Shown: positions 5,925-57,571 of the stretch, one piece after another
Position numbering within the stretch: position 1 is the first letter of the stretch
How the letters are laid out: each line of letters begins with the position of its first letter
Assembly (NCBI RefSeq): GCF_003865135.1
Contig: NZ_BHZC01000001.1
Location: 3,162,001-3,226,000, forward strand
DNA length: 64,000 nucleotides
Source: Streptomyces chrestomyceticus JCM 4735
Lineage (GTDB): Bacteria > Actinomycetota > Actinomycetes > Streptomycetales > Streptomycetaceae
Direction of reading: 5' to 3'
Made by a program: the position numbers and the translations under genes
Notes under the pieces: generated by a model
Seen by the model: only the letters and a program-made list of their open reading frames with translations
Told to the model about the DNA's origin: nothing
Databases searched by the model: none

Positions 5925-5931
5925 GCAGCCT

Positions 5932-5970
5932 TGACAGCGCGGCGCGGTACGCGGCCGGGCCGCGCTGTCA
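5932..5970. terminator. Stem-loop terminator between convergent genes
   Basis: Perfect 12-base arms TGACAGCGCGGC (5932-5943) and GCCGCGCTGTCA (5959-5970) flank a 15-base loop. The right arm includes the stop codon of the leftward diiron gene, and the ABC gene ends 8 bases before the left arm. There is no U-run on either side. A bidirectional terminator is the likely role. Confidence 0.7.
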
Positions 5971-41136: not shown

Positions 41137-44100
41137 GTGTCGCCACAGTCCCCCAACAGTTCGAGCACTTCGACTGACCAAGAGGGGCAGGGTAAGAACC
41201 CTGCTGCCGCGTTCGGTCCGAACGAGTGGCTCGTCGACGAGATCTACCAGCAGTACCTCCAGGACCCGAACTCGGTAGACCGAGCCTGGTGGGACTTCTT
41301 CGCCGACTACAAGCCAGGAGCGGGCGCCAGCACGCCGGCCGCGGCGAGTGAAGGCAGCCCCGCCGCTCCGGCCTCCGGAACGCCCCAGGCCGCCCCGGCG
41401 GCGCCGAGCGCGCCCGCGGCACCCGCCGCGCAGCAGCCCGCGCCGAAGGCCGCCGCGCCCGCAGCGCAGCAGCCCGCCGCCCCGGCGAAGCCCGCCGCGA
41501 GTGCCCCGGCGCCCGCCCAGGCCGCTCCGGCGAAGACCGCACCCGCACAGCCCGCTCCCAAGAAGGACGACGTGAAGCCCGACGAGGCGCCCGCAGGCCC
41601 GGAACTGGTCACCCTCCGTGGCCCCTCCGCCGCTGTCGCGAAGAACATGAACGCCTCCCTGGAGCTGCCCACGGCCACGTCCGTGCGCGCCGTCCCGGTG
41701 AAGCTGCTGTTCGACAACCGCATCGTCATCAACAACCACCTCAAGCGCGCCCGTGGCGGGAAGGTCTCCTTCACCCACCTCATCGGGTACGCGATGGTGC
41801 AGGCCCTCAAGGCCATGCCGTCGATGAACTACTCCTTCCAGGAGAAGGACGGCAAGCCGACCCTGGTCAAGCCCGAGCACGTCAACCTGGGCCTGGCCAT
41901 CGACCTGGTGAAGCCCAACGGTGACCGCCAGCTCGTCGTCGCGGCGATCAAGAAGGCGGAGACGCTCAGCTTCTTCGAGTTCTGGCAGGCGTACGAGGAC
42001 ATCGTCCGCCGCGCCCGCAACAACAAGCTGACGATGGACGACTTCACCGGGGTCACCGCGTCGCTGACCAACCCGGGCGGCATCGGCACCGTCCACTCCG
42101 TGCCCCGCCTGATGCCCGGCCAGGGCCTCATCATCGGCGTCGGCGCGATGGACTACCCGGCGGAGTTCCAGGGCACCTCGCAGGACACCCTGAACAAGCT
42201 GGGCATCTCCAAGGTCATGACGCTGACCAGCACGTACGACCACCGCGTGATCCAGGGCGCCGCCTCCGGCGAGTTCCTGCGCATCATGAACCAGTTGCTG
42301 CTCGGCGAGAACGACTTCTTCGACGACATCTTCAAGTCGCTGCGCATCCCCTACGAGCCGGTGCGCTGGCTGCGCGACATCGACGTCAGCCACGACGACG
42401 ACGTCACCAAGGCGGCCCGGGTCTTCGACCTGATCCACGCCTACCGGGTGCGCGGCCACGTCATGGCCGACACCGACCCGCTGGAGTACGAGCAGCGCAA
42501 GCACCCCGACCTCGACATCATCGAGCACGGGCTGACGCTGTGGGACCTGGAGCGCGAGTTCGCCGTCGGCGGCTTCGCCGGCAAGACCATGATGAAGCTG
42601 CGCGACATCCTGGGCGTGCTGCGCGACTCGTACTGCCGCACCACCGGCATCGAGTTCATGCACATCCAGGACCCGAAGCAGCGCAAGTGGATCCAGGACC
42701 GGGTCGAGCGCGGGCACTCCAAGCCGGAGCGCGAGGAGCAGCTTCGCATCCTGCGCCGGCTGAACTCCGCCGAGGCGTTCGAGACCTTCCTCCAGACGAA
42801 GTACGTCGGCCAGAAGCGGTTCTCCCTGGAGGGCGGCGAGTCCGTCATCCCGCTGCTGGACGCGGTGATCGACTCGGCCGCCGAGTCTCGCCTGGACGAG
42901 GTCGTCATCGGCATGGCCCACCGCGGCCGCCTGAACGTCCTCGCCAACATCGTCGGCAAGTCGTACGCGCAGATCTTCCGCGAGTTCGAGGGCAACCTCG
43001 ACCCGAAGTCGATGCACGGCTCCGGCGACGTGAAGTACCACCTGGGCGCCGAAGGCACCTTCACCGGCCTGGACGGCGAGCAGATCAAGGTCTCGCTGGC
43101 CGCCAACCCCTCGCACCTCGAAGCGGTCGACCCGATCGTCGAGGGCATCGCCCGCGCCAAGCAGGACATCATCGGCAAGGGCGGCACGGACTTCACCGTC
43201 CTGCCGGTCCAGTTGCACGGTGACGCGGCGTTCGCCGGCCAGGGTGTGGTCGCCGAGACGCTGAACATGTCGCAGCTTCGCGGCTACCGCACCGGCGGCA
43301 CGGTGCACATCGTCATCAACAACCAGGTCGGCTTCACCGCCGCGCCGGAGTCGGCCCGCTCCTCCATGTACGCCACCGACGTGGCCCGCATGATCGAGGC
43401 GCCGATCTTCCACGTGAACGGTGACGACCCGGAGGCCGTGGTGCGGGTCGCGCGCCTCGCCTTCGAGTTCCGCCAGGCGTTCAACAAGGACGTCGTCATC
43501 GACCTGATCTGCTACCGGCGCCGCGGTCACAACGAGACCGACAACCCGGGCTTCACGCAGCCGCTGATGTACGACCTGATCGACAAGAAGCGCTCGGTGC
43601 GCAAGCTCTACACCGAGTCGCTGATCGGCCGCGGCGACATCACGCTGGAGGAGGCCGAGCAGGCCCTCCAGGACTTCCAGGGCCAACTGGAGAAGGTCTT
43701 CACGGAGGTCCGCGAGGCCACCACCGCCCCGGCCGCCCCCGAGGTGCCGGAGCCGCAGGCCGAGTTCCCGGTCGCCGTGGACACCGCGATCTCCCAGGAG
43801 GTCGTCAAGCGGATCGCCGAGTCCCAGGTCAACATCCCCGAGCGGGTCACCGTCCACCCGCGCCTGCTGCCGCAGTTGCAGCGCCGCGCGGCCCAGGTGG
43901 AGGACGACACCATCGACTGGGGCACGGGCGAGACCCTCGCCTTCGGTTCGCTGCTGATGGAGGGCACCCCGGTCCGCCTGTCGGGCCAGGACTCCCGCCG
44001 CGGCACCTTCGGCCAGCGCCACGCGGTGCTGGTGGACCGGGAGACCGGCGAGGACTACACCCCGCTGCTCTACCTGTCCGAGGACCAGGCGCGCTTCAAC

Positions 44101-44961
44101 GTCTACGACTCGCTGCTCAGCGAGTACGCGGCGATGGGCTTCGAGTACGGCTACTCGCTCGCCCGCCCCGAGGCGCTGGTCATGTGGGAGGCGCAGTTCG
44201 GTGACTTCGTCAACGGCGCGCAGACGGTCGTCGACGAGTTCATCTCCTCGGCGGAGCAGAAGTGGGGCCAGACCTCCGGCGTCACGCTGCTGCTGCCGCA
44301 CGGCTACGAGGGCCAGGGCCCGGACCACTCCTCGGCCCGTATCGAGCGCTTCCTCCAGTTGTGCGCGCAGAACAACATGACCGTCGCCATGCCGACGCTC
44401 CCGTCGAACTACTTCCACCTGCTGCGCTGGCAGGTGCACAACCCGCACCACAAGCCGCTGGTCGTCTTCACCCCGAAGTCGATGCTGCGTCTGAAGGCCG
44501 CGGCGTCGAAGACGGCGGAGTTCACCACGGGCGGCTTCCGGCCGGTGATCTCGGACGACGCGGCGAAGGCCGAGGACGTCACCAAGGTCATCTTCTGCTC
44601 CGGCAAGGTCTACTACGACCTGGAGGCGGAGCGGGTCAAGCGCGGCGCGTTCGACACGGCGCTGGTCCGTATCGAGCGGCTGTACCCGCTGCCCGGCAAG
44701 GAGCTCCAGGCGGAGATCGCCAAGTACCCGAACGCGGGCAAGTACCTGTGGGTGCAGGAGGAGCCGGCGAACCAGGGTGCGTGGCCGTTCCTGGGTCTGA
44801 ACCTGATCGACCACCTGGACCTGTCGGTCGGCGCCGACGTGCCGCACGGCGAGCGCCTGCGCCGCATCTCGCGGCCGCACTCCTCGTCGCCGGCCGTGGG
44901 TTCGGCCAAGCGCCACCAGGCCGAGCAGGCCGCGCTGATCGCCGAGGCGTTCGACGCGTAA
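41137..44961 (+). CDS. kgd: Multifunctional 2-oxoglutarate decarboxylase/dehydrogenase (Kgd)
   Basis: A 1274-residue enzyme like mycobacterial Kgd. The order is: a short [20 protein letters not shown]1 N-terminal segment, an Ala/Pro-rich linker, an E2-type acyltransferase catalytic domain with [10 protein letters not shown] (His about 369), and a full E1 module from about residue 420 ([43 protein letters not shown], then [18 protein letters not shown]). There is no lipoyl domain, as in the actinobacterial enzyme that borrows it from another protein. It links 2-oxoglutarate to succinyl-CoA or succinate semialdehyde in the TCA cycle. GTG start. Confidence 0.95.
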
Positions 44962-45051: not shown

Positions 45052-48000
45052 TCAGACCGGCTGGGGTTCGAAGTCCCAGTACGGGCGGCGCCTGCGGCGC
45101 GCGGAGAGCGTGTGCGGGTGTTCGGCGCCCAGCGTCTCGGTGAGCTGCTGTACGGCCTGCTGCTCCAGCTTGGAGGCTTCCTGGCCGCGCCGCAGCGCCC
45201 GCAGGTCGTCGGCGAGCGCCGTCTTGGCGGAGAGCGTCAGCGGGTGGGTGTCGCCGAGCACCTGCTTGGCGCGCTCCAGGGTCTCCCGGCTCAGCTCTGC
45301 GGCGCTCTCCTCGTCGTCGACGCGGTTGCGGGCGCCGGCGGCGTTCAGGGCGCAGCCCAGCGTCCAGGGGTGGTCGGCGCCCACCGCCCGGGTCATGCCC
45401 CGGAGCGCCTCCTCGGCGATGGCCAGCGCGTTGTCCCGCTCGCCGAACTCCCACGACACCAGACCGGTGTTGCCGAGCGTGCCGACCGCGAACGGGTGGG
45501 CCTCGCCGACCAGGGCGCGGTACCGCTCGGCGGCCTCCTCGCCCAGGTCCCTGGCTCGGCCGAGGTCACCGTGCTCGCGCAGGAACGTGGCGTAGTTGGC
45601 CTGCATCATGAGCGTCTCCGGATGCCGGGGGCCGTGCACCCGGCGGGAGCGTTCCACGACATCGCCCATCAGGGCGTCGGCCTGGGTGACGGCGCCGGAG
45701 CGGCGCAGGCACAGCGCGAGGTTGTGCTCGGCGCGCAGGGTCAGCGGGGTGTGCTTGCCCATGGTCTGGCGGTAGAGCCGTGCGTTCAGCTCCTGGCGGG
45801 ACAGGGCGTCGGTGTAGTGGCCGAGCAGGCGCAGCATCCGGGCGTAGGAGTAGGCGGCGCCGAGGGTGAGGTGGTGGCGGGCGCGCAGTTCGCGTTCCCA
45901 GACGAGCAGCACTTCGCCGAAGAGTTCGAGGGCCTCCTGGTAGCGGCCCAGGGCGCTGAGCGCCGAGGCGAGGTTGCTGCGGGAGGAGAGGGTGAGCGGC
46001 GCCTCGGGCCCGAGGAGTTCCGTACGGCCCCGGACGACCGACTCGAACATCTCCAGCGCGTGCCCGTAGGATCCCAGCGCCATCAGGGTGCCGGCGAGGC
46101 CGTCCTGGGCGCGCAGCAGCGCGCCGTCGCCCGGCTCCCGCTCGGCGGTCAGCTCCTCGACGATGGCGCTGCCGACCGCTTCGGCCTCGCGGTAGCGGCC
46201 CAGCCTGCGCAGCATGTTGGCGTGCTGGTGGGTGATCACGAGCATGGTGCGCTGGGTGGGGGCGATGCGGTTGCGCCAGCGGGAGAGGAACTGTTCGCAC
46301 AGCCGCAGGCCGATGCGGTACTCGCCGCGGACCCGCAGGTACTCGATGCAGTTCAGCAGCAGTTCCTGGACGGCGGTCTCCGGGCTGTCCAGGACGCCGG
46401 CCGGTTCCAGGTGCGGGATGAGGGCGGCGTACTGCTCCCAGGTCCGGGTGTCGGAGGGGCCCTGCGGGTCGGCGGTGGCCAGCACCCGGCAGGCCGTGGC
46501 GGACATCGCGTCCCGCTCGTCCTCCGCCATGTCGCTGCGCAGGAACCGGTGGTAGAGCCGGTGCATCTGCGCGGTCTCGACGGCGGGGTCCGAGGTGGTC
46601 TGGGCGACCTGGTAGTCCAGGCGTACGGCGGTGGACTCGGTGAGCCGGCGCAGCGCGGTGTTCCAGGCGATGGGCTCGGCGGCCAGGTCGGCGAGGTATT
46701 CGGGCAGGTCGCCGCGGCGGGCGCGGGCGAGCATCGGCACCGGGATCGCGTCCGGCGCGAAGAAGGCGAACAGTTTGAGCAGTTCGACGGCGGCGGGGCT
46801 GCGTTCGCGCAGCGTGTTCAGCGTTATGGCCCAACTGGTCTGGAAGGCCATCGGGTAGTCGGTGGAGATGCGGATGCCGACCAGGCTCGGCTCGCCGCGG
46901 CGGATCAGCTCGATGTACTCCTTGGGCGCCATCGGGTTGGCGTCCAGCCAGGCGGCGGTCTGGGCGAGCAGCAGCGGCAGGTCCTGCACGGCCTCGGCGA
47001 GCAGGTCGGCTTCCATGGTGGTCAGCCGGGGCGCGCGGCGCCGCGCGTAGGCGACGGACTCGATCCGGGTGAAGGGCAGCACCTCGATCTCCTGGGCGCT
47101 GCCGGAGCCGGACCAGTCGCGGGTGAGGGTGGTGATCAGGACGTGGCCGCGGCCGTCCGGCACCAGGTCCTCGATCTGCTCCATGTCGTCCGCGCTGTCG
47201 AAGATCAGCAGCCAGCGGCGGTACGGACGGCCGACCCGCAGCGCCTCGTGGACGGCGCGGATCCGGTCGCCCAGCTCCTGGCCGACCGGCAGCCCGAGGC
47301 GGGTGGCCAGCTCGGCGAGCTGTTCGCGGGCCGCGCCCCGGTTGGTGGCGCTGATCCACCACACGACGTCGTAGTCGTTGCCGAAGCGGTGGGCGTACTC
47401 GGCGGCGATCTGGCTCTTGCCGACGCCGGAGATGCCGTACAGCGCGATCCGGGTCTCCAGCGGCTGGCCGAGGCCGGGCAGCGGGCCCGCCAGCTTGCCG
47501 TGCAGCTCCTCCAGCGCGGTGTCGCGGCCGGTGAAGCGGTTGTTGCGGCGGGGGATGTTCCAGATCTCGGGCGGGTCGTTGGGGAAGCGCGGCGCGTTGG
47601 CGGCGGGCTCGGCGGGGCGGCGGGCGCCGGCCGGCACGCCGAGGCGGTTCAGGACGCGGCGGTTGGCCTCGACGGCGTCCAGGTCGCGCAGGTCGGCGGG
47701 GCGCAGCACGGAGGCGGTGGCGGGCAGCCGCTGGGTGGCGACGCTGACGGCGGCGAACCGGTCGGCGTGGTCCGGCACGACCTCCTGGAGGGCGGTCGTC
47801 CACTCGTCGTGCGTCTTGGGGCCGAGCTTGAAGTACCAGTCGTCCAGGACCATCAGCAGGCGGCCCTCGGCCGCGAGCAGACCGGCCAGCTCCTCGGTGA
47901 GGGGGCTGTCGGCCGGGGGGTCCCAGCGCAGCATGGTGGTGCCGTGGCCGAGCTGTTCGAGCTGGTGCGAAATCCACGCCGCCCACGGCCGGTTGAAGCC

Positions 48001-48057
48001 CGCATAGCTGATGGTGATGTGCTCTGCGGAGCCGGTGTTACCGGACTGATCGACCAT
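45052..48057 (-). CDS. fxsT: FxsT-like TIR/NTPase/TPR protein of an FxSxx-COOH system
   Basis: A 1001-residue protein. A TIR-like N-terminal domain (about 12-140: ITISYAGFNRPWAAWISHQL) leads into an NB-ARC STAND NTPase with Walker A GISGVGKS (208-215) and RWLLIFDSADD as Walker B, a winged-helix region, and about ten TPR/kinesin-light-chain-type repeats (about 530-995, recurring HPLTLSAK-like units). This is the layout of the TPR protein of FxSxx-COOH radical-SAM systems. STAND proteins oligomerise on ligand binding and often trigger immunity or signalling. ATG 48057 has GAGGAG 8 bases upstream. Last gene of the seven-gene block. Confidence 0.88.
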   Translation of the reverse strand: MVDQSGNTGSAEHITISYAGFNRPWAAWISHQLEQLGHGTTMLRWDPPADSPLTEELAGLLAAEGRLLMVLDDWYFKLGPKTHDEWTTALQEVVPDHADRFAAVSVATQRLPATASVLRPADLRDLDAVEANRRVLNRLGVPAGARRPAEPAANAPRFPNDPPEIWNIPRRNNRFTGRDTALEELHGKLAGPLPGLGQPLETRIALYGISGVGKSQIAAEYAHRFGNDYDVVWWISATNRGAAREQLAELATRLGLPVGQELGDRIRAVHEALRVGRPYRRWLLIFDSADDMEQIEDLVPDGRGHVLITTLTRDWSGSGSAQEIEVLPFTRIESVAYARRRAPRLTTMEADLLAEAVQDLPLLLAQTAAWLDANPMAPKEYIELIRRGEPSLVGIRISTDYPMAFQTSWAITLNTLRERSPAAVELLKLFAFFAPDAIPVPMLARARRGDLPEYLADLAAEPIAWNTALRRLTESTAVRLDYQVAQTTSDPAVETAQMHRLYHRFLRSDMAEDERDAMSATACRVLATADPQGPSDTRTWEQYAALIPHLEPAGVLDSPETAVQELLLNCIEYLRVRGEYRIGLRLCEQFLSRWRNRIAPTQRTMLVITHQHANMLRRLGRYREAEAVGSAIVEELTAEREPGDGALLRAQDGLAGTLMALGSYGHALEMFESVVRGRTELLGPEAPLTLSSRSNLASALSALGRYQEALELFGEVLLVWERELRARHHLTLGAAYSYARMLRLLGHYTDALSRQELNARLYRQTMGKHTPLTLRAEHNLALCLRRSGAVTQADALMGDVVERSRRVHGPRHPETLMMQANYATFLREHGDLGRARDLGEEAAERYRALVGEAHPFAVGTLGNTGLVSWEFGERDNALAIAEEALRGMTRAVGADHPWTLGCALNAAGARNRVDDEESAAELSRETLERAKQVLGDTHPLTLSAKTALADDLRALRRGQEASKLEQQAVQQLTETLGAEHPHTLSARRRRRPYWDFEPQPV

Positions 48058-48150
48058 GCGACCGTCTCCTCGGTATGCGGTGGTTCGCGCGGGCGCGAGC
48101 TGGCTGTTCGGCACGATAGCCCAAGTATCGTCCCGCACGGCGACGCCACG

Positions 48151-49437
48151 TCAGGTCTTGTTCGCCGTACGCCAGTTGACGGATACCCCGGTCGGCGTGG
48201 GGGCGGGCCGGGCCGGCCGGCCCATCCGGACCTCGGCGTCCAGCCGGGCGGCGATGTGCCGGATCACCCGTTCCAGGTCGGCGCAGTACACGGACGGGTT
48301 ACGGAAGCCGCTGCCGCCGGCCCGGTAGCGGTGGGCGTAGTTGCCGCCGCCGCAGACCGTCATCAGCGCGCAGCCGCGGCACCGGTCGCACAGGCCGTCC
48401 GCGCCGAGCCGCCGGGCGGTCATCCCGGGGTGGCGGAGCGCCTCGTCGAAGCTGTTGCGGAAGACGTCCAGGCCGGTGGCGGCGGCGCCCTCGTACGCCG
48501 ATTTGAGGGAGTCGACCTGCTCGATGGCGCCGTCGGTGTCGACGATGAGCGCGACGACGGGTGACAGGCCGACCGCCTCGCTGGTGCTGGGGCGGCCCAG
48601 CAGCAGTCCGATGATCTCGGTGAAGAGGCGGACGCGGGGCGCCGGCTCCCGTTCGGCCCACCACAGGTCGAAGACGGCGCACAGCCAGTCGCCGTACGGG
48701 GTGGGGCCCGCCGGGCCGGGCGGCAGCGGCGGGCGGCTGGTCCAGTTGGCGTGCGGCAGGAGGAAGTCGAGCATCGGCGGGCCGAGGGCGCGCAGCGAGC
48801 CGTAGACCTGGGCGGGGTCGGAGGTGAGGTCGACGGTGCACAGGATGCCGGCGAAGACGCCGGGGCGGCCGGCCAGCAGGCGGGCGGCGCGGGACGCGGC
48901 GGGCCAGGAGGAGCGGCCCGCGTGGTCGACGCGGCGGCGGTTGAGGCCCGGGGTGCCGCCGTCCAGGCTGAGGCCGACGCGGAAGCCCGCGCCGGCCAGC
49001 GTGTCGAGCGTCGCCGGGGTGAGGAGGGTACCGTTTGTCTGTACGCCCAGGTGGGCGTGGCAGTCGGCGGGGAGCTCGGCGCGCAGCGCGGCCGCCTGGT
49101 CGAGGAGCGGGCCGGGGCCGGTGAGCAGGGGTTCGCCGCCGTGCAGGTCGATGCGTATCTCGTCCAGGCCGTGGGCGCGTACGTGTTCCGCTATGCGCCG
49201 GGCGGTCTGGCGTACGGTGCCGGGCGGGGCGTGCGGCGGGCGGTCGCGCCAGGTGCGGTCCGGGCTGGTGTAGATGTAGCAGTAGGTGCAGGCGAGGTTG
49301 CAGCGGCTGTGCGTCTTCAGGACGAACTGCCGGAAGGGGATCGCGGCCCGCTGATGGTTCTGGCACACCACGACGCCGCCCCCCTGCCCGCGTCCGACGT
49401 CCGGGCACCCCGGAGACGGCCCGCTGTCGCCATACAT
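48151..49437 (-). CDS. fxsB: FxsB-like radical SAM/SPASM cyclophane-forming peptide maturase
   Basis: About 428 residues. The radical SAM 4Fe-4S motif is CNLACTYC (C46, C50, C53), followed by LHGGEPLL (glycine-rich SAM contact) and VQTNGTLL. Near residues 350-390 there is a SPASM-type Cys cluster (LCDRCRGCALMTVCGGGNYAHRY and VYCADLE). FxsB enzymes cross-link an aromatic ring to a nearby side chain in a small precursor. The precursor gene lies about 100 bases upstream on the same strand. The start is uncertain: ATG 49437 is used here and ATG 49458 is also open, neither with a strong ribosome site. Confidence 0.88.
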   Translation of the reverse strand: MYGDSGPSPGCPDVGRGQGGGVVVCQNHQRAAIPFRQFVLKTHSRCNLACTYCYIYTSPDRTWRDRPPHAPPGTVRQTARRIAEHVRAHGLDEIRIDLHGGEPLLTGPGPLLDQAAALRAELPADCHAHLGVQTNGTLLTPATLDTLAGAGFRVGLSLDGGTPGLNRRRVDHAGRSSWPAASRAARLLAGRPGVFAGILCTVDLTSDPAQVYGSLRALGPPMLDFLLPHANWTSRPPLPPGPAGPTPYGDWLCAVFDLWWAEREPAPRVRLFTEIIGLLLGRPSTSEAVGLSPVVALIVDTDGAIEQVDSLKSAYEGAAATGLDVFRNSFDEALRHPGMTARRLGADGLCDRCRGCALMTVCGGGNYAHRYRAGGSGFRNPSVYCADLERVIRHIAARLDAEVRMGRPARPAPTPTGVSVNWRTANKT

Positions 49438-49538
49438 GGCTCGGCCGCCGGGAGACATGCACAGGGCATCGACAACTGTCCGGATACGCGGCCTGGTTGG
49501 CCGGATACCGCTGATCAGGAGCGGTCGGGGCACGCCCC

Positions 49539-49772
49539 TCAGCGGTCGTCCCTGGGGTCCCCCGGGCCGTCGTCGTAGTACGCCACCGCCCGCTCGGCGG
49601 GGGTCCAGGTGCGCAGCAGGAGGGCCGTCACCTCCCCCAGCACCCGGTGGTCCGTCCCTGCGGCCACCGCGGCCACATCGACACCGCCGAAGTCCGGCAG
49701 CGGCTCGGCCGACGGGCCGGACGGCTCGGCCGGTGCGGCCGGGGCCGTACCGGTGACGGGGACTGTCGCCAC
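49539..49772 (-). CDS. FxsA-like RiPP precursor with non-canonical C-terminus
   Basis: A 77-residue protein from GTG 49772, with AGAGGAG upstream. After an Ala/Pro-rich start it carries the FxsA-like leader LPDFGGVDVAAVAAGTDHRVLGEVTALL. The family is named for a terminal F-x-S-x-x motif, which is missing here: the protein ends AVAYYDDGPGDPRDDR. Tyr-x-Asp triplets (YYD, YDD) are known cross-link motifs in three-residue cyclophane peptides, so the tail may still be modified. Alternatively the gene is degraded or only the leader is used. It lies between the vWA gene and the radical SAM gene. Confidence 0.65.
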   Translation of the reverse strand: MATVPVTGTAPAAPAEPSGPSAEPLPDFGGVDVAAVAAGTDHRVLGEVTALLLRTWTPAERAVAYYDDGPGDPRDDR

Positions 49773-49853
49773 GCTGTTCTCCTCTGGGCCGGGTGGACGG
49801 GTGTTTCCCGCGCGCGCGGGCACGGAAACCCCCGGGCCGGCCGGGTCAGGCGG

Positions 49854-52800
49854 TCATTCGGACGGGTCCAGGGCGCGCATCCGCTCCCTCGTGCGCCGGG
49901 CCTCGGGGCCGTTCTCCTCGGCCGCGTGCTGCCACTGCTCCCAGCTCTCCCGGTACGCCACCAGGGCCGCCTGCGGCCCGGCCGTGTCCTCCAGCACCCC
50001 GGCCCGCCGGTGGTGGGCGCGCGCCGCCAGCAGGGGGCTGCCCGCGCGGTCGGCGTCGGCCGCGGCCCGGCGGTAGCAGGCGGCGGCGCGGTCGTGCCGC
50101 TCCCGGGAGCCGAAGCGCCGGTCGAGTGCGAGCTGGACGTCGCCGACCTCCAGCCATGCCTCCGCGGCGACGGCCGGGTCGTGCGAGCTGCGCGCGGCCA
50201 GCTCCAGCACCCAGTCGGCCTCGTGCAGGTCGGCCAGCGAGGGCTGCCGGTCGTGGCGCAGCCGCAGGGCGCGGCCGAACAGCAGCCGGTGGGCGCCCAG
50301 TTCGGGGTCGTTCGGGGCGACCCGGCCGAGCGCTTCGCGCAGGACGTGCACCGCCTCGTTCGCCAGCCGCTTGCCGTGTTCGCCGGGGGGCTCCAGCCGG
50401 GCGCGCAGCAGCAGGGCCGCGCCGCGCTCGGCCAGCAGCGTGCTGTGCTCGGGCGAGTCGGGGGTGATCAGGCGCAGTGCGGCGGCCAGTGCCTCGATCG
50501 CCTTGTCCAGGGCGGCGGCGTCGCCGGTGCGGGTGTGCACGGCGCGGTGCGCGGCGGCCGTACGGGTCAGGCTCTCCGCCTCCAGGGCCGGGTCGCGCAG
50601 CTCGCGGGCGAGCGCGCGAGCCAGCGCGAGGACGGGCAGGACGGTGTCCGGTCCGGTGCCGGCGCCGAGCAGCGAGCGGGCCTGGGCCAGCTCCAGCAGC
50701 GTCTCGCACACCTTGCGGTCGGCGCCGCCGCCCTTGCGGCGCAGCAGGACCGTGGCGGCGTCCAGGTCGGCGGTGGCACGCAGGGCGAGCGCTCCGGTGT
50801 GCGCCTCGGTGCCGGACTCCGCGCCGGCGGCGCGGCGCGCCTGGTCCAGCAGGACGCCGCCGCGGGCGGCGTAGATCTCGCCGGGCACCTGTTCGCCGCT
50901 GGGCCACTGTTCGAGGAGGACGGTCAGGGCGTGCTCGGCCTCGTCGAGGGGGTCGCCGGGGCGGCCGGCGGCTCCGGTGGCCGGGGCCAGCGCGGCCAGC
51001 CGCCGCAGCACTTCGGTACGCAGCACCATGCTCTCCAATACGCGGGGGTCCAGCAGGCTCATCAGCCCGCACGCGGTGTCCAGGTGGCGCGCGGCGTCCT
51101 CCAGCGCGCTCCGTTCACCGTCCGGGTACCCCGCGGCGCCGCGTTCCTGCGCGGCGGCGTAGCGCACCCGGGCGAGCACGATCAGGGCTCTGACGCGTGC
51201 TTCGCCGTCCCCGTCCGGCGCCTGTGCCGGGTCGTCGCCGACGGCTTCCGCCGCCGCCCGGACCGACCGTTCCGCCTCTTCCAGGGCGTCCGGCTGCCGC
51301 CACTCCGCCCAGCCGTGCAGCAGCGCGCGGGCGAGGTCGGTGCCCGCGGCGGGAAGCTGCCGGGCCGCGGCGCGCAGCAGGCGCACCGCTTCCATCAAGT
51401 CGCGTACCGTGCCGTCCTGTTCGTAGCGCTCCAGCAGTGCGGCACCCTCGGCAGCGGGCCCGTCGGGCGCGTACGGCGGCGGGGCGGGTGTCCTGAGGGC
51501 CGGTTCGAAGCGGCGCAGGACCCGTTCGGAGATCCGCGCGAACGGTTCGGGCACGGCGCGCTGCCCGGTGGTCGGCTCCCGGCCGCTGCCGGAGAGCATG
51601 GCGACCGCCACGGCCGGGAAGTTGCGGGCGCTGCGGCCGAACGTGCGCTCGATGTACAGGGAGCAGTGCTTGAGGACGAGGGCGGCCTCGCCGGCGCTCA
51701 GGCGGCTCAGCAGCTCGTCGCGTACGCCGGGCACGAACTCGTACCAGGGACCGCCGGCCGCGCCCGCGTGGGCGGGCCCGCCCGTCGGGTCGGGCAACTG
51801 CTCGACCAGGCCGCTGAGCAGCACCTCCGCCAGTTCGGCGGGGCCGGTCTGGGGCAGCATGGCGCGCTGGACGAGCTGGATGACGGGCAGCGCGAGCGGT
51901 ACGGCCGACAGGTGGACGGCCAGGTGCCGGGCGTCCGGGGAGGCGGTCTGCTCGAACTCCCGCACCAGGTCGCCGGGTTCGGGCCGATCGGTGCGGCGGA
52001 CGAGGTCCGTGCCGAGGCCGTGGTCGCTGCGGACGACGGCGGCGGCGCCGCGCAGCGAGAGGCCCGACTCGGCCGCGGCCAGCCGGGCCCAGGAGCCGAG
52101 GGCGGCGGGGGCGGCCGACAGGACCGGCACGGCGCGCTCGCGCACCTCGCCCTGCGGGCGCCCGCTCGCGGACGGGGCGCGGCGGCGGCGCCGGGCGGGC
52201 CTGAAGCCGAGGGCGCTGTACGGGCCCTGGCGCCGCACGAGGGTGCCCGCGACGGCCGGGAGCAGGGTGCGGGCCCACATCCGCTGCGGCAGCGGCTGCA
52301 CCACGGCCAGCGGCGCGTCGGCCGCCCAGCGGTACAGCAGCCGCTGGATGCGCCCGTCGCGCCACAGCGGGCCCGCGCAGTCGCTGACGACGAGGGTGAG
52401 GTGGTGGCCCGTGGGGTCGTGCAGTTGGTCGGCGGGGCGCAGCGGGGCGTCCCGGCCGGGGCCGGCGGCGACGCCGACCTCGTCGCCGTGCGGGTGGAGG
52501 TAGTGCACCGTGACGTCACGGAAGGCGCCGACCCGTTCGCAGACCTGCCGCAGGTCGTGCAGCATCTGCTCCCACACGGCCATGGAGGAGGAGCCGTCCA
52601 TCAGCAGCCGCAGGCTGGCCGCGCGGCGGCGGACGCCGCGCAGCACCGGGATGATCAGTTCGGCGTGTGCGGAGAGGTCGGCGGTGGCGGCCTCGTCCAG
52701 TTCCTGGCGGGCCGGGGCGACCGGCGGGTGGTAGCGCTGGACCGGCCGCAGGGCGCGCTGCAGCGGCAGCAGTCCGGGGAAGGCGGAGGCGACGGGGATG

Positions 52801-53159
52801 CCGACCTCGCCCAGCCGCCCCTGACCGGGGCCGAGGGTGCGGTCGTCCTGTGCGGGCAGCAGGTCCACCTCCGGGCGGCGGGGGCGGTCGCGCGCGGCGG
52901 GCTCCGTACGGGACGGTGTGTCGCGGGCCGGTTCGCGGCTGCGGGGGTCCACGGAGAATGTGGCTGGTTTTGGCCTCTGCACGGCGGCCGGAACGGTGCC
53001 GTCGGCGGGCTCTTCGTCGCCTTCGGAGGGCGCGGGGGTGATCCACCGGGCCAGCCACAGCGCGTCCGCCATGGAGCGGGCGTCGGCGGGCAGCCCGGCC
53101 GCGCGCAGCCGCGCGACGATCTCACCGAGAGGGCCGAAGCCCGGTCCGCCGGCCGGCAC
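49854..53159 (-). CDS. vWA-containing SAV_2336-family protein with helical repeats
   Basis: An 1101-residue protein. The first 45 residues match the start of the SAV_2336-type N-terminal domain (FGPLGEIVARLRAAGLPADARSMADALWLARWI). A von Willebrand A-like domain follows, with a MIDAS-type LLMDGSSSM (DxSxS at 188-192) and LTLVVSDCAGPLW. From about 560 to the end are TPR-like helical repeats. In vWA-MoxR-VMAP systems the vWA protein binds the MoxR ATPase, whose gene ends 6 bases upstream. GTG 53159 start. The repeats could hold the FxsA/FxsT partners, though that is inference. Confidence 0.82.
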   Translation of the reverse strand: MPAGGPGFGPLGEIVARLRAAGLPADARSMADALWLARWITPAPSEGDEEPADGTVPAAVQRPKPATFSVDPRSREPARDTPSRTEPAARDRPRRPEVDLLPAQDDRTLGPGQGRLGEVGIPVASAFPGLLPLQRALRPVQRYHPPVAPARQELDEAATADLSAHAELIIPVLRGVRRRAASLRLLMDGSSSMAVWEQMLHDLRQVCERVGAFRDVTVHYLHPHGDEVGVAAGPGRDAPLRPADQLHDPTGHHLTLVVSDCAGPLWRDGRIQRLLYRWAADAPLAVVQPLPQRMWARTLLPAVAGTLVRRQGPYSALGFRPARRRRRAPSASGRPQGEVRERAVPVLSAAPAALGSWARLAAAESGLSLRGAAAVVRSDHGLGTDLVRRTDRPEPGDLVREFEQTASPDARHLAVHLSAVPLALPVIQLVQRAMLPQTGPAELAEVLLSGLVEQLPDPTGGPAHAGAAGGPWYEFVPGVRDELLSRLSAGEAALVLKHCSLYIERTFGRSARNFPAVAVAMLSGSGREPTTGQRAVPEPFARISERVLRRFEPALRTPAPPPYAPDGPAAEGAALLERYEQDGTVRDLMEAVRLLRAAARQLPAAGTDLARALLHGWAEWRQPDALEEAERSVRAAAEAVGDDPAQAPDGDGEARVRALIVLARVRYAAAQERGAAGYPDGERSALEDAARHLDTACGLMSLLDPRVLESMVLRTEVLRRLAALAPATGAAGRPGDPLDEAEHALTVLLEQWPSGEQVPGEIYAARGGVLLDQARRAAGAESGTEAHTGALALRATADLDAATVLLRRKGGGADRKVCETLLELAQARSLLGAGTGPDTVLPVLALARALARELRDPALEAESLTRTAAAHRAVHTRTGDAAALDKAIEALAAALRLITPDSPEHSTLLAERGAALLLRARLEPPGEHGKRLANEAVHVLREALGRVAPNDPELGAHRLLFGRALRLRHDRQPSLADLHEADWVLELAARSSHDPAVAAEAWLEVGDVQLALDRRFGSRERHDRAAACYRRAAADADRAGSPLLAARAHHRRAGVLEDTAGPQAALVAYRESWEQWQHAAEENGPEARRTRERMRALDPSE

Positions 53160-53165
53160 CGCGGG

Positions 53166-54224
53166 TCACCTGGTCCGATCCAGGGGCCGCAGCAGTTCGG
53201 CCGTCAGGCGCCGCCGCGTCTCCTCCTCGTCCTCGTCCGCCCAGCCGGCCTTCTGCGTCAGGTGGATGGCGTTGAGCAACTGGTCGACGGCGCGTACGTC
53301 ACCGGGCTCGCGGTCCAGGAAGCGGTCGATCAGCGGCTCGTAGTCGGCGGCCGCGCTCTCGCCGAAGTGCGCCCGGACCATGTCGGCGAGCCGCTCCTTG
53401 TCCGGGGTGGGGATGTTCAGGTGGATGCAGCGGCGCAGCAGCGGAGCGGGGAAGTCCCGTTCGCCGTTGCTGGTCAGCACGATGAACGGGAAGGCGCGGC
53501 AGCGCACCCGGCCGTCGCGGACGGTGACCTGGCCGCCGTCGTCGCTGAGCACCGGCACCTCGGGGGCGGATCCGGCCAGCCGCTCCAGCTCCGGAATCCG
53601 GAACTCCCCTTCCTCCAGGACGTTGAGCAGGTCGTTCGGCAGGTCGATGTCGCTCTTGTCCAGCTCGTCGACGAGCAGGACGCGGGGCTTCGCGGCGGGC
53701 AGCAGGGCCGTGCCGAGCGGGCCGAGGCGGATGTAGCGGCCGATGCCGCCGCCCGGCTCGTCCGGTGTCCGCGGGCGTCCCTCGGCCGGGTCGGGGCCGG
53801 GCCGCGGCTGGGCGGCGCGGGCGATCTGGAGGTCCTGGAGGCGGCCGATGGCGTCGTACTCGTACAGCCCGTCGCGCAGCGAACTGCGGCTGACGATGGA
53901 CCAGTTCAGCACCCGGCCCAGGCCCAGCTCGTAGGCGACCGAGTGCGCGAGGGTGGACTTGCCGCTGCCCGGGGCGCCGGTGACCAGCAGCGGACGGCGC
54001 AGGTAGAGCGCGGCGTTGACCAGCTCGCGCTCGGTCTCGCCCGGCCGGTGGTAGCTGGCCTCGCGGCGCTGTACGCCGAGCCTGCGCTCGGAGGCGTGGT
54101 CGAGGGCGGCGGGCGGCGCCACCGGCGGGCCGCCGTCGAAATCCCGCCAGGGAGGGGGCGGTGGTAACTGCTCGATGCCGTCGTGCGGAGCCCCCGCGCC
54201 ACGGTAGATGAGCCAGTCGCTCAC
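53166..54224 (-). CDS. MoxR-type AAA+ ATPase
   Basis: A 352-residue AAA+ protein: Walker A VTGAPGSGKS (81-90), Walker B RVLLVDELDKSD (181-192), sensor 1 FIVLTSNGERDFP, and an arginine-finger region PAPLLRRCIHL. MoxR ATPases remodel partner complexes together with vWA proteins, and the vWA gene follows after 6 bases. GTG 54224 is chosen because GAGGAG lies about 7 bases upstream; the frame is open to 54341. A 187-base gap separates it from the trypsin gene and may carry an internal promoter. Confidence 0.87.
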   Translation of the reverse strand: MSDWLIYRGAGAPHDGIEQLPPPPPWRDFDGGPPVAPPAALDHASERRLGVQRREASYHRPGETERELVNAALYLRRPLLVTGAPGSGKSTLAHSVAYELGLGRVLNWSIVSRSSLRDGLYEYDAIGRLQDLQIARAAQPRPGPDPAEGRPRTPDEPGGGIGRYIRLGPLGTALLPAAKPRVLLVDELDKSDIDLPNDLLNVLEEGEFRIPELERLAGSAPEVPVLSDDGGQVTVRDGRVRCRAFPFIVLTSNGERDFPAPLLRRCIHLNIPTPDKERLADMVRAHFGESAAADYEPLIDRFLDREPGDVRAVDQLLNAIHLTQKAGWADEDEEETRRRLTAELLRPLDRTR

Positions 54225-54333
54225 GTCGGAACTCCTCGTCGCCGGCCGGCCATCGGGCAGGGGCGAAGGGGCCGCGGAAGAGCAACCCCGGCAAGCGTCG
54301 GCATCCGCTTCCCGCCCTCCCCCGACCCGTCCC

Positions 54334-54358
54334 CCTAGCAATCTCTCACGACGCTAGG
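54334..54358. repeat. Short inverted repeat upstream of the MoxR gene
   Basis: CCTAGC (54334-54339) and GCTAGG (54353-54358) are separated by 13 bases in the gap between the VMAP and MoxR genes. It may be an operator or part of an internal promoter. Evidence is weak. Confidence 0.35.
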
Positions 54359-54411
54359 ACAGTAGCCAGCCGGACGGAAGGATGCGGGGCGTTTTCCGGT
54401 CTCGGGGGACG

Positions 54412-56628
54412 TCATGGGGGCGACAATTGCGTGGCGCCGGGGAAGAGTTGGGGAATCGGGTTGTCCGGGTCGTCGTAGAGGAGCACGAGGTCGCGGGCCC
54501 AGGAGGCGCCGCCCTCGGCGGCCTTGGCCCGCAGTTCCCGCACCAGTTCGGGTATCTCGGCGACCGACTTCGGCGCGCCGAGCAACTGTGACACCTCCCG
54601 GTGGAACGCGTCGCACACCCGGTCGCAGTCCCGTTCGCCGTGGCCCTCCGCGAGCCACAGCGCGACCGGGTGGCCGGTGTCCAGGGTCCAGCCGACGGCC
54701 TCCAGCCCCGTACCGTCCGCCACCGACCGGCACAGCGCCGGTACCGCGCCCTCGTCCGCCTCCTCCAGCAGCCGGGACAGCCCCGACACCGAGGCGCGGG
54801 GGCCGGCCGGCACCCGCAGCGCGGTCATCCGCCCGGCCGCGGTCAGGCCCTGCCAGCGCCGCAGCCAGGCCGGGTCCACCTCCTGGCGGCGCCCCTGGTC
54901 GCGCAGCACCACCGCGCGCGTCGGGCCCAGCGGGCGCAGGCGCGCGGACCGGCGCGTCGAGGCCGGTACGCGCCAGCGGGCCGCCGGCGTGTGCCACCGC
55001 TCCTCCGGCACCGCGACCTCCAGGCGCACCCGGGCGCCGCCCGCCGCGTCGTCGGCGCGCAGCAGCCGTGGGCCGAGCCGTTGCAGCACCTGGTCGCAAG
55101 CCTGCTCGAAGGGCACGCCGTCCCGCGTCTCCTGGATCTCGACGCGCTGCCACCGGCCCTGCCCGTACCCCTCGCTGACCGACCAGTTGAACAGTTGGCG
55201 GCCGCCCGCGTCGTCGTAGAACAGCGGCTCGAACTCCACCAGCAGCGCGTCGGGGCGGCGGCGTACCGGTCCGATCCGCTCCCGGTCCCTGGGCAGGAGG
55301 ACGACCGCCTTGGCCGTGACGAACAGTTCCAGCCGCTCGGCGGCCGTGCGGAGCGCGACGCCCTCGTCGCCGGGGACCTCCCGCGCCTCGTCGGCCGTGC
55401 GCTGCGCGACGATGCGCAGGTAGTGCACGAAGGCGCACAGCTCCGTGTACGGGTCGCTGCCCTGGTAGAGCGCCCCGTGCCCGTCCCGCCAGGTGCGCAG
55501 CGTCCACGGCCCGGCCCGGCCGGTACGGCCCTGCGGGTCCGCGCGGCCCAGCGCCTCGGCGACCGCGGCGGCCACCACGAGCGGGTCGCGCGGCGCGGGC
55601 AGCGACGCCAGCAGGTCGAGCGCCTGCAGCCGCTCCTGCACGCCCCACAGCCGGCCGCGCCCCGACATGATCGCGTGCTGCGCGTCGAACCAGGTGGGCT
55701 CGCCCGGCCCGCCGAGGTCCTGCCCGGCCCAGTGCCAGCGGTCGTGCAGGCCCATCAGCGCGTGGTACGGGTCGTCGCCGAGCCCGGCGGCGCCCGGTAC
55801 GAGGTGGTGCGGCGCCAGCCCGCGCAGTTCGGTGACCGGCACCGCGAGGCCGAGCCGGTCCTCGCGGTGGCTGCCTTTGACGATGCCGACGACCTCGCCC
55901 CGGTCGCAGTCCAGCAGCGGTCCGCCGGACGCGCCCGGCGTCACCCGGACGTCGGTGCCGAACTGGAGGCCGCGGGCGTCGCGGGCGCCGAAGCGGACGG
56001 CGATGAAGGGGTCGACGGGGGCGGCACCCGGGTCGGGGGCGGCGCCGGAGACGGGGCCGCGTCCGGCGCCGGGCGGGTCCTGGTCATGGCCGCGGAAGAT
56101 GAACGCGTCCTCCAGGAGCGCGGCCGGCTGGTCGCTGAGCCAGGCGCACGGGTGCCGGATGCCGGGATCGAGGAGCCGCAGGAGGGCCAGGTCCACGCGG
56201 GGGCCCGGAGCGGGCGCCGGGCCGCTCCCGGCCGCCTCCCGGCCGGTGTCCGGGTCTTCCGGTGCTTCCGGTCTGTCCTCCCCCGCCGTCCCGCACGGCG
56301 GGGGAGCCGCCCGTAAGGGGGCCGGGCGGCTCAGGTCGTACTCCAGGCGCGCGGCGGCCACCCGCCCGTCGAACGCCACCCCGACCTCGCCGTCCGGGCC
56401 CGTGGCGCGGCGCCGGCCGTCGCCGCTGGTGAGCACGTGGGCGCAGGTCAGCACCCAGCCGGGGGCGACGAAGACGCCGCTGCCCCACAACGGCGCCGGG
56501 GTCACACCGGGCGCCGGGCGGATGGCGACGGTCGCCCGGCCCGCGTGCCCGAGGAGGTGCGCGTACTTCTCGCGGTCCGCGCGTTCACCCCGTCCGGGCC
56601 CGTGGCCGCCTTCCGGGGCCGCCATCAC
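54412..56628 (-). CDS. Trypsin-like serine protease with VMAP C-terminal region
   Basis: A 738-residue cytosolic protein with no signal peptide. The N-terminal third is a trypsin-like protease with an intact triad: His64 in LTCAHVL, Asp146 in RVDLALL, Ser234 in TPGASGGPLL. The middle helical segment contains ERLQALDLLASLP. The C-terminal half resembles the VMAP-C region of vWA-MoxR-associated proteins (LRTWRDGHGALYQGSDPYTELCAFVHYLR, then the closing RDLVLLYDDPDNPIP). An intracellular protease in a ternary vWA-MoxR-VMAP system is the likely effector, activated by the ATPase. Start GTG 56628 or ATG 56625, overlapping the upstream stop. Confidence 0.85.
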   Translation of the reverse strand: MMAAPEGGHGPGRGERADREKYAHLLGHAGRATVAIRPAPGVTPAPLWGSGVFVAPGWVLTCAHVLTSGDGRRRATGPDGEVGVAFDGRVAAARLEYDLSRPAPLRAAPPPCGTAGEDRPEAPEDPDTGREAAGSGPAPAPGPRVDLALLRLLDPGIRHPCAWLSDQPAALLEDAFIFRGHDQDPPGAGRGPVSGAAPDPGAAPVDPFIAVRFGARDARGLQFGTDVRVTPGASGGPLLDCDRGEVVGIVKGSHREDRLGLAVPVTELRGLAPHHLVPGAAGLGDDPYHALMGLHDRWHWAGQDLGGPGEPTWFDAQHAIMSGRGRLWGVQERLQALDLLASLPAPRDPLVVAAAVAEALGRADPQGRTGRAGPWTLRTWRDGHGALYQGSDPYTELCAFVHYLRIVAQRTADEAREVPGDEGVALRTAAERLELFVTAKAVVLLPRDRERIGPVRRRPDALLVEFEPLFYDDAGGRQLFNWSVSEGYGQGRWQRVEIQETRDGVPFEQACDQVLQRLGPRLLRADDAAGGARVRLEVAVPEERWHTPAARWRVPASTRRSARLRPLGPTRAVVLRDQGRRQEVDPAWLRRWQGLTAAGRMTALRVPAGPRASVSGLSRLLEEADEGAVPALCRSVADGTGLEAVGWTLDTGHPVALWLAEGHGERDCDRVCDAFHREVSQLLGAPKSVAEIPELVRELRAKAAEGGASWARDLVLLYDDPDNPIPQLFPGATQLSPP

Positions 56629-57029
56629 TCACCCGGGTCGTGCGGCCCTCGGCCGCCGGCGCGGCCGCCCTGCTCCGGGGCGGTGCCGGTCCCGGGCGTC
56701 TCCCGCTTCCGCCACGTGAGCGTCACGGACAGGTTGGCCTTGGCCTCGCCGTCCGCGAGCAGCGCCACCGCCCGGCCGGGCTTGGCCGCCACCTCCACGC
56801 CGAAGGTCACACTGGTCTCGTCCGGCGCCACCCGTTCGGTGGCCTCGCGCAGGCTCGCCGCGACCCCGCCGACCAGGTCCCGCAGCCCCTCGACCCGGGC
56901 GCCGAGCGCCTCCCAGGCCCCGACGTCGTCGTATTCCTCGTCCGGCGTCCCGGCGACGTCCAGCCGGGAGACCCGGGCCCAGACCGCCGTACCGTCGGGC
57001 AGCTCGATGAGATGTGCGCGATCGCGCAT
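56625..57029 (-). CDS. Trypsin-co-occurring domain (CU044_2847 family) protein
   Basis: A 134-residue protein: LIELPDGTAVWARVSRLD start, a helical middle, then VTFGVEVAAKPGRAVALLADGEAKANLSVTLTWRK, the beta-rich core of the trypco1/CU044_2847 family, and a disordered tail. These small proteins are encoded beside trypsin-like proteases of conflict systems and probably act as adaptor or substrate. The stop overlaps the protease start. GGAGG lies 5 bases before ATG 57029. First gene of the seven-gene minus-strand block. Confidence 0.75.
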   Translation of the reverse strand: MRDRAHLIELPDGTAVWARVSRLDVAGTPDEEYDDVGAWEALGARVEGLRDLVGGVAASLREATERVAPDETSVTFGVEVAAKPGRAVALLADGEAKANLSVTLTWRKRETPGTGTAPEQGGRAGGRGPHDPGE

Positions 57030-57180
57030 CACGGCCTCCTGCTCCCCCTGAGCGGCAGAGTCCCACTGCCCCAGGGCCGTTGACAGGTGATCAGGTTATC
57101 CCCAGGGTGCGAGTGACGCGAGGGGTCGCGACGCCTGCCTATCCTGGCCGGGTACGTCCCGAAAACCTGGTGGAGAGCGC

Positions 57181-57360: not shown

Positions 57361-57506
57361 CCCGGCGCCGCGTGCGACGCGGTGCGTGCCCGGGCCCGGC
57401 CGGCCGGCGGTCCTCCCGCCGTCCCGGCCGGGCGCTTTTGTGTGCCGGGGCGCCGCCGTGCCCTCGCCGTGGCATCCGGGGCGCCGCCCTTGGAAAGGAC
57501 GCCGGG

Positions 57507-57538
57507 CGCGATATATCGTGTCGGTAGAGACGCGATAT
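57507..57538 (+). promoter_or_regulatory. Candidate PadR operator
   Basis: CGCGATAT occurs at 57507-57514 and again at 57531-57538, 24 bases apart. The first copy extends into the perfect palindrome CGATATATCG (57509-57518). It is an AT-rich island 34 bases before the DUF4097 start, in an operon that ends with a PadR gene, so autoregulation is likely. Confidence 0.6.
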
Positions 57539-57571
57539 GTTGCGTTGTCGTCATGCCAGGGAGGCCAGGAC

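What the first reader, a model, noticed from the sequence alone, without database searches (positions are those of the whole stretch)
45052..57029. Seven-gene block joining a vWA-MoxR-VMAP/trypsin system to a radical SAM peptide system
All seven genes are on the minus strand in the order trypco1, trypsin-VMAP, MoxR ATPase, vWA/SAV_2336, FxsA-like precursor, FxsB radical SAM maturase, FxsT TIR-NTPase-TPR. vWA-MoxR-VMAP ternary systems with trypsin-like effectors, and FxSxx-COOH peptide systems, are each known from comparative genomics. Here they look like one functional unit. A working idea is that the modified peptide is the sensor or trigger, the TIR-STAND and vWA-MoxR proteins transmit the signal, and the intracellular protease is the effector. 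The mechanism is inference.
Basis: partly seen in the sequence, partly recalled or inferred. Interest (0 to 1): 0.85.

Follow-up and report, generated by a model that had tools for sequence, protein, structure and literature searches.

The report
Peptide-coupled bacterial alarm gene block
In Streptomyces, genes that make a small, probably ring-shaped peptide are inherited as one unit with genes for an immune-receptor-like protein, a molecular motor pair and a protease; the union was already in print, but this copy is a distinct version with different peptide chemistry.

Summary
In detail: seven tightly spaced minus-strand genes, 45052-57032. The halves are one inherited unit: in related named Streptomyces records, 60 of 66 loci whose contig spans the region keep trypsin-VMAP, MoxR, vWA, FxsB and FxsT in order; 40 of 41 linked FxsBs form one clade; the block sits beside kgd. 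The union is not new: Kaur et al. 2020 (PMC7159879, section 24) describes it. One label is wrong: the precursor is YxD-tail, not FxSxx. What I add: two chemistries at one address. FxS-like cores come with a separate HExxH peptide-hydroxylase gene (45 of 46; the 46th has it fused to FxsB); YxD-like cores, as here, lack it (47 of 48). FxsT's TPRs resemble kinesin light chain, which binds aromatic-acidic peptides, and FxsT itself ends in an aromatic-acidic tail (104 of 108). Best mechanism (inferred): FxsB makes a Tyr-x-Asp ring; the ring peptide is an internal ligand of the TIR-NB-ARC-TPR receptor, armed by the MoxR-vWA-VMAP complex; the trypsin domain is the only recognised protease. Anti-phage function is untested. 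New variant of a known kind.

The parts
56625..57032 (-). Trypco1 (trypsin-co-occurring domain 1), first gene of the block; overlaps the next gene by 4 nt
   Evidence: PF19493 64.7 bits, cut-off 24.6; gap
54412..56628 (-). Trypsin-VMAP: HtrA-like serine protease domain (residues 49-249) fused to VMAP-C (479-721); His, Asp and Ser of the triad present
53166..54341 (-). MoxR-type AAA+ ATPase (likely start GTG 54224); carries WLIYRG and PPWRDF, which fit the two N-terminal motifs that Kaur et al. give for VMAP-system MoxRs
   Evidence: AAA_5; sequence; motif definition
49854..53159 (-). vWA protein, SAV_2336 N-terminal family, MIDAS-type motif DGSSS from residue 188, long C-terminal region
   Evidence: NF041121 428.6 bits; motif
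49539..49823 (-). Precursor peptide of the YxD type (FxsA position; likely start GTG 49772)
   Evidence: NF041709 77.3 bits, cut-off 55; starts
49569..49577 (-). Predicted ring, residues Tyr83-Asp84-Asp85 of the 94-residue reading, in the tail AVAYYDDGPGDPRDDR
   Evidence: core pattern [YHF]-x-D in 48 YxD-like precursors, a pattern that my search itself requires; Tyr C3-Asp C-beta link known for YxdB (PMC11002830 passages)
48151..49533 (-). FxsB-family radical SAM/SPASM cyclophane-forming maturase (likely start GTG 49371 or 49368)
   Evidence: TIGR04269 414.6 bits, cut-off 370; CxxxCxxC and four later cysteines invariant in 24 aligned sequences
45052..48138 (-). FxsT: TIR (residues 41-157), NB-ARC (230-344), kinesin-light-chain-like TPRs (about 674-926)
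45055..45087 (-). FxsT C-terminal aromatic-acidic tail RPYWDFEPQPV
   Evidence: [YFH]-W-D then hydrophobic-acid in 104 of 108 FxsTs of this kind of block
41137..44961 (+). kgd (2-oxoglutarate dehydrogenase), the constant neighbour on one side; not part of the block
   Evidence: near the block in 32 of 40 sample loci and 61 of 79 named loci
58454..59611 (+). PadR-like regulator, a recurrent neighbour on the other side (with a DUF4097 gene at 57382-58338 +); not part of the block
   Evidence: near the block in 26 of 40 sample loci

Best explanation
The block is one inherited operon-like unit: a VMAP-type vWA-MoxR ternary system with a built-in ring-peptide module, of the YxD subtype. SHOWN by sequence: gene content, conserved order, essentially one clade of FxsB in it, one chromosomal address, an intact protease triad, conserved radical-SAM cysteines, a YxD core, and no HExxH hydroxylase. 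INFERRED: FxsB links the Tyr of Y-x-D to the Asp two residues on, locking an acidic, aromatic tail into a ring. None of the seven proteins matches a transporter family, so the peptide probably acts inside the cell. It is a ligand for the groove of FxsT's kinesin-light-chain-like TPRs, where FxsT's own aromatic-acidic C-terminus may compete with it and set the off-state. The vWA-MoxR pair, held by VMAP, remodels this complex when it meets a trigger, which frees the TIR-NB-ARC part to act. The HtrA-like trypsin on VMAP is the only recognised protease in the block, and cleaves either the precursor or the armed complex.
For: Unit: 60 of 66 spanning named loci in full order; in the 150-genome survey 37 of 72 fetched short FxsB loci are linked, plus the divergent L103; 40 of 41 linked FxsBs in one clade; kgd neighbour in 32 of 40 and 61 of 79 loci against 0 of 54 unlinked FxsB loci; distance matrices of the five large proteins correlate at r 0.88-0.97 over 35 loci. 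Chemistry: NF041709 and TIGR04269 over cut-off; YxdB precedent; no hydroxylase-domain match in any of the 11 YxD-clade sample loci. Ligand idea: the 16 PDB sequence matches of FxsT at 1e-3 are all named kinesin light chain or light-chain TPR-like repeats; kinesin light chain TPRs bind Y-acidic and W-acidic peptides and an in-cis acidic segment (PMC6214655 passages); conserved FxsT tail. Protease: triad in 35 of 35 block VMAPs, against Trypsin_2 matches in 21 of 37 sampled VMAPs without FxsB.
Against: No experiment. The correlated distances lack a species-tree control, since the gyrB letters could not be cut out. The FxsA core and FxsT tail are not significantly alike: median shuffle p 0.14 for FxS and 0.375 for YxD loci. 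L165, whose genome has no FxsB match at 1e-80, keeps the YWDFE tail, so the tail is not tied to the ring enzyme. Five VMAPs with an HExxH gene but no FxsB nearby show no trypsin motif, so a trypsin is not needed for peptide-coupled systems in general. The AU test does not reject one origin of linkage (p 0.096), so L103 is no firm independent replicate. The 35 block VMAPs are relatives, so 35 of 35 is not 35 independent events.
Confidence: 0.4

Rival explanations
1. The peptide is the weapon: a released toxin or cell-to-cell signal that amplifies the ternary system, as Kaur et al. suggest.
For: PMC7159879 section 24 says the processed peptide likely acts as a toxin or signal; the core differs between loci.
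Against: None of the seven proteins matched a transporter family. The HExxH domain read there as the processing peptidase is an alpha-ketoglutarate-dependent hydroxylase in a characterised radical-SAM-fused case (PMC12636437 passages; NCBIfam names it so), and it is absent here.
Confidence: 0.22
2. A core stress or developmental checkpoint, not anti-phage defence: the stable address and inheritance mark it as a chromosomal regulator.
For: kgd/PadR address in both subtypes; a PADLOC scan of six of the seven proteins gave only generic radical-SAM and AAA matches.
Against: TIR-NB-ARC-TPR, VMAP and peptidase parts match predicted conflict systems; 43 of 150 genomes of the family have no VMAP-C match at 1e-5 at all, so it is dispensable.
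Confidence: 0.25
3. Two independent systems that merely sit together at a permissive site.
For: FxsB-FxsT pairs without VMAP are common, and VMAP systems without FxsB too.
Against: Same order and strand, essentially one FxsB clade, same address, receptor tail specific to this kind of block.
Confidence: 0.07
4. The trypsin-VMAP is mainly the leader peptidase of the precursor, and the TIR of FxsT is the effector (compatible with the main reading; it settles what the protease does).
For: Only recognised protease in the block; triad in 35 of 35; trypsin motif also in L165, where an HExxH protein stands in for FxsB.
Against: Most of the sampled VMAPs with a trypsin motif have no HExxH match and no FxsB in the fetched region; no cleavage site is known.
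Confidence: 0.3

Closest known systems
FxSxx-type VMAP ternary system with peptide-processing module (Kaur et al. 2020, eLife 9:e52696, PMC7159879)
   Same: VMAP, MoxR, vWA in that order; trypsin with Trypco; radical SAM-SPASM gene; separate TIR-AP-ATPase-TPR gene downstream
   Different: Precursor tail is Y-x-D, not FxSxx, RxD or an acidic run; no HExxH gene. Their supplementary gene tables and figures were not seen.
YxdB triceptide pathway (Sugiyama et al. 2022, JACS; seen only as passages of the review PMC11002830)
   Same: Radical SAM enzyme and Y-x-D core; predicted Tyr C3-Asp C-beta link
   Different: Whether that pathway lies in a VMAP block is not stated in the passages seen
Kinesin light chain TPR with Y-acidic, W-acidic and in-cis LFP-acidic peptides (PMC6214655, passages)
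   Same: FxsT TPR sequence; aromatic-acidic tail
   Different: Analogy of working only; the in-cis segment lies N-terminal of the TPRs in kinesin light chain and C-terminal in FxsT; no binding data
DegS/HtrA serine proteases
   Same: Fold of the trypsin domain
   Different: Fused to VMAP-C; no PDZ family among the Pfam matches

Membership tests
VMAP-type vWA-MoxR ternary system | VMAP-C domain | tested here: met
   PF20028 131.8 bits, cut-off 27
VMAP-type vWA-MoxR ternary system | Gene order VMAP, MoxR, vWA on one strand | tested here: met
   definition
VMAP-type vWA-MoxR ternary system | MoxR N-terminal motifs WxhapG and PsWRxa | tested here: met
   WLIYRG and PPWRDF read by eye; definition
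VMAP-type vWA-MoxR ternary system | vWA with the metal-site aspartates | tested here: inconclusive
   first aspartate in DGSSS; the second was not checked against a profile
VMAP-type vWA-MoxR ternary system | Trypsin accompanied by Trypco1 or 2 | tested here: met
   PF13365 and PF19493
FxSxx-type peptide-coupled VMAP system | Radical SAM-SPASM gene and separate TIR-AP-ATPase-TPR gene downstream | tested here: met
FxSxx-type peptide-coupled VMAP system | FxSxx precursor C-terminus | tested here: not met
   tail AVAYYDDGPGDPRDDR, NF041709
FxSxx-type peptide-coupled VMAP system | HExxH ('zincin-like') gene | tested here: not met
   no hydroxylase-domain match at 1e-5 in window 40001-60500, motif required or not
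FxSxx-type peptide-coupled VMAP system | vWA with TPRs fused C-terminally | tested here: inconclusive
   no Pfam match at 1e-3; only two weak matches to designed proteins
YxD triceptide system | Precursor over family cut-off | tested here: met
   NF041709 77.3 bits, cut-off 55
YxD triceptide system | FxsB-family radical SAM with CxxxCxxC and SPASM cysteines | tested here: met
   TIGR04269 414.6 bits, cut-off 370; invariant C17, C21, C24, C324, C327, C333, C356; which of these belong to SPASM is recalled
YxD triceptide system | Tyr-Asp cyclophane in the product | not testable with these tools
   needs mass spectrometry or NMR
Known anti-phage system (PADLOC) | System-specific protein match | tested here: inconclusive
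   six of seven proteins scanned; only generic viperin-like, mad8 and IetA matches, 5.9e-11 to 4e-4

The most novel reading that the evidence does not exclude
FxsB has two substrates: the small precursor and the C-terminus of the immune receptor FxsT itself. The 104 block-type FxsT tails with the motif are all [Tyr/Phe/His]-Trp-Asp, the i,i+2 pattern that such enzymes cross-link, so the receptor's tail could be locked into a ring and the free ring peptide would be its mobile competitor. A radical-SAM-modified NLR-like receptor would be a new kind of immune-receptor control.
Probability: 0.06. Interest if true: 0.9.

Novelty: new variant of a known kind. Interest (0 to 1): 0.5.

Why it matters
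It gives a naturally varied series at one orthologous site: constant receptor, motor pair and protease; variable peptide chemistry (ring plus hydroxylase, ring only, hydroxylase only). That makes the open question of what these coupled peptides do testable by comparing or deleting peptide modules in harmless Streptomyces strains. It also puts in doubt the published idea that an HExxH peptidase releases the peptide, and leaves the VMAP trypsin as the candidate protease to test.

Tried and rejected
Peptide as FxSxx type: rejected on NF041709 and the sequence. FxsB-FxsT as a general partner of VMAP: rejected, it is clade-specific. Sequence mimicry between FxsA core and FxsT tail: tested, not significant. 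Trypsin as obligate partner of every peptide-coupled VMAP: not supported, five HExxH-only cases lack the motif. Species-tree control with gyrB: hits found, letters not available. Empty-site test at kgd-PadR in genomes without the block: not answered. VMAP model: mean pLDDT 83; the listed structural matches lie mainly in the protease part, so VMAP-C is barely tested; the Foldseek job was not accepted. vWA model: not accepted. The HExxH profile was first seeded with L165's own protein; rebuilt without it, L165 still matches at 3.1e-53, and NCBIfam TIGR04267 names it an aKG-HExxH-type peptide beta-hydroxylase (138.5 bits, cut-off 40). Of the 20 long FxsBs that seeded the profile only 7 keep HE..H; one that I scanned matches NF040587, the 'inactivated' form. 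Trypco1 was found by my HMM in only 18 of 40 sample loci against 61 of 66 spanning named loci. The sample of VMAPs without FxsB was to be 60; 40 were fetched, of which three proved linked (L173, L191, L194) and were set aside, leaving 37. Papers: PMC7159879 section 24 in full, section 9 part 1, and passages; PMC12636437, PMC11002830 and PMC6214655 passages only. Searches for prior art on this union. In those listings (titles and starts of abstracts) only PMC7159879 showed it; PMC8195603, PMC10907252, PMC10910872, PMC9239279, PMC12839542 and PMC12734244 hold some of the terms and were not opened, and most subscription papers are not held.
Full report
What is there. The seven genes exist as described, on the minus strand from 57032 down to 45052: Trypco1, trypsin-VMAP, MoxR, vWA/SAV_2336, precursor, FxsB, FxsT. 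Third-position GC of 0.88-0.95 and gaps of -4 to 70 nt fit one operon. The precursor is not FxSxx: it matches NF041709, the YxD-tail family, and ends AVAYYDDGPGDPRDDR. The genome is one contig of 9.38 Mb with two VMAP-C matches, one FxsB over its cut-off, a second FxsB split over two frames, and one FxsT over cut-off. The nearest named FxsB is from Streptomyces monomycini, 95% identical in the best segment.

Is the union real? I surveyed 150 genomes of the same family. FxsB matched at 1e-80 in 123 of 150. From the rows that one search listed (the list was cut) I fetched 71 short FxsB loci and 20 long ones. Of 72 short loci including the window, 37 carry a vWA of this kind upstream on the same strand, and 35 of these show MoxR and trypsin-VMAP too; in L080 and L088 those lie outside the stretch held. 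L103 is a divergent 38th case. The other 34 have none on the same strand, though L063 has a vWA-MoxR system on the opposite strand; none of the 20 long loci has one. Seen from the other side, 39 of 150 listed VMAP-C domains (a cut list) have a precursor match within 12 kb, near the 'about 20%' of PMC7159879. A second set, 79 named records, gave 66 whose contig spans the block; 60 of 66 hold trypsin, VMAP-C, MoxR, vWA, FxsB and FxsT in order, and 61 a Trypco1 match. The six others are L215, L241, L261, L273, L279 and L281. L261 and L279 have FxsB and FxsT beside a different MoxR-type ATPase (weakly MadB-like in L261) and no VMAP in view; L273 holds a VMAP block upstream as well as that arrangement.

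One clade, one address. On a tree of 96 FxsBs, 40 of 41 linked ones fall in one supported clade (99/94), with one unlinked member, L203, inside it (the same contig as L261). L103 lies elsewhere on a long branch, but the AU test does not reject a single clade (p 0.096). The block sits between kgd and a DUF4097-PadR pair: kgd was seen in 32 of 40 sample loci and 61 of 79 named ones (I did not sort every miss; several stretches end short), in 0 of 54 unlinked FxsB loci, and in 1 of 37 unlinked VMAP loci, L165, which is the same block with another enzyme. Distances of the five large proteins correlate at r 0.88-0.97 over 35 loci, without a species control.

Two chemistries at one site. Of 107 loci with FxsT in view (40 sample loci and 70 named ones after dropping duplicates, less three without FxsT), 46 have FxS-like cores such as LWGFNSAF, 48 YxD-like cores, 3 other cores, and in 10 no core was recognised. 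A separate HExxH reading frame on the same strand is present in 45 of 46 FxS-like and 1 of 48 YxD-like loci; the median gap from FxsB to FxsT is 1472 nt against 21 nt. The FxS-like exception, L264, has FxsB fused to the domain (TIGR04267 159.6 bits, cut-off 40). The YxD-like exception, L273, is the double locus, and its HExxH frame (5275-6474) lies in the upstream VMAP block. With a profile that does not require the motif, 0 of 11 YxD-clade sample loci match, and 28 of 29 other sample loci match with the motif; the one miss, L088, is a 4.2-kb contig. NCBIfam calls the gene an aKG-HExxH-type peptide beta-hydroxylase (L053 161.7 bits, L165 138.5). [quoted passage not shown] The YxD subtype is one FxsB clade of 11 (100/94; L201's core was not recognised by my pattern) and most FxS loci another of 26 (100/99). 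YxD cores read mostly V-A-[YH]-[YHF]-[ED]-D-[ASG]-P; my pattern itself demands [YFH]-x-D-[AGS], so only the neighbours are informative. A known enzyme, YxdB, links Tyr C3 to Asp C-beta (PMC11002830 passages). L165 has the HExxH protein and no FxsB.

Verdict. What remains as new, to the extent of my searches, is the YxD, hydroxylase-free variant, the fixed address with exchangeable peptide enzymes, and the aromatic-acidic receptor tail. The mechanism is inference.

Noticed in passing
L165:222-12370: Same kgd-side block in a genome with no FxsB match at 1e-80: an aKG-HExxH-type hydroxylase stands in the FxsB place and the likely precursor ends EAWCEGQGDQAA; the FxsT tail is still YWDFE.
   Followed up: partly
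L261:9815-21132 and L279:9629-21124: FxsB and YxD precursor beside another MoxR-type ATPase, a TIR-NB-ARC-TPR reading frame of 1640-1684 residues and a second FxsT, with no VMAP in view: an alternative MoxR coupling.
   Followed up: partly
L108 (G000:C1:849030-850329): The window's genome has a second YxD precursor with an FxsB split over two frames and no MoxR, vWA or FxsT match in the 20 kb fetched; looks like a relic or an assembly error.
   Followed up: partly
window:45055-45087: FxsT C-terminal tail RPYWDFEPQPV; a D-h-E/D-P-like tail is common in related NB-ARC-TPR proteins, aromatic-Trp-Asp was seen only in block-type ones.
   Followed up: partly
L103:10500-16400: Divergent Trypco1-VMAP-MoxR-vWA-radical SAM-FxsT locus whose FxsB falls outside the main clade; possible second coupling.
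   Followed up: partly
L063: A short FxsB with a vWA-MoxR system on the opposite strand nearby.
   Followed up: no
L282: Precursor with two YxD-like cores in tandem (GAYFSDAPAVGAYFADAP).
   Followed up: no
L080: About 7.5 kb separates the vWA gene from FxsB, the precursor match lying on the vWA side; looks like an insertion.
   Followed up: no
L109 (G000:C1:2942581-2943249): A second VMAP system in the window's genome, with no FxsB match in the stretch fetched.
   Followed up: no
window:36941-38101: Rhomboid-like protein (PF20401), minus strand.
   Followed up: no
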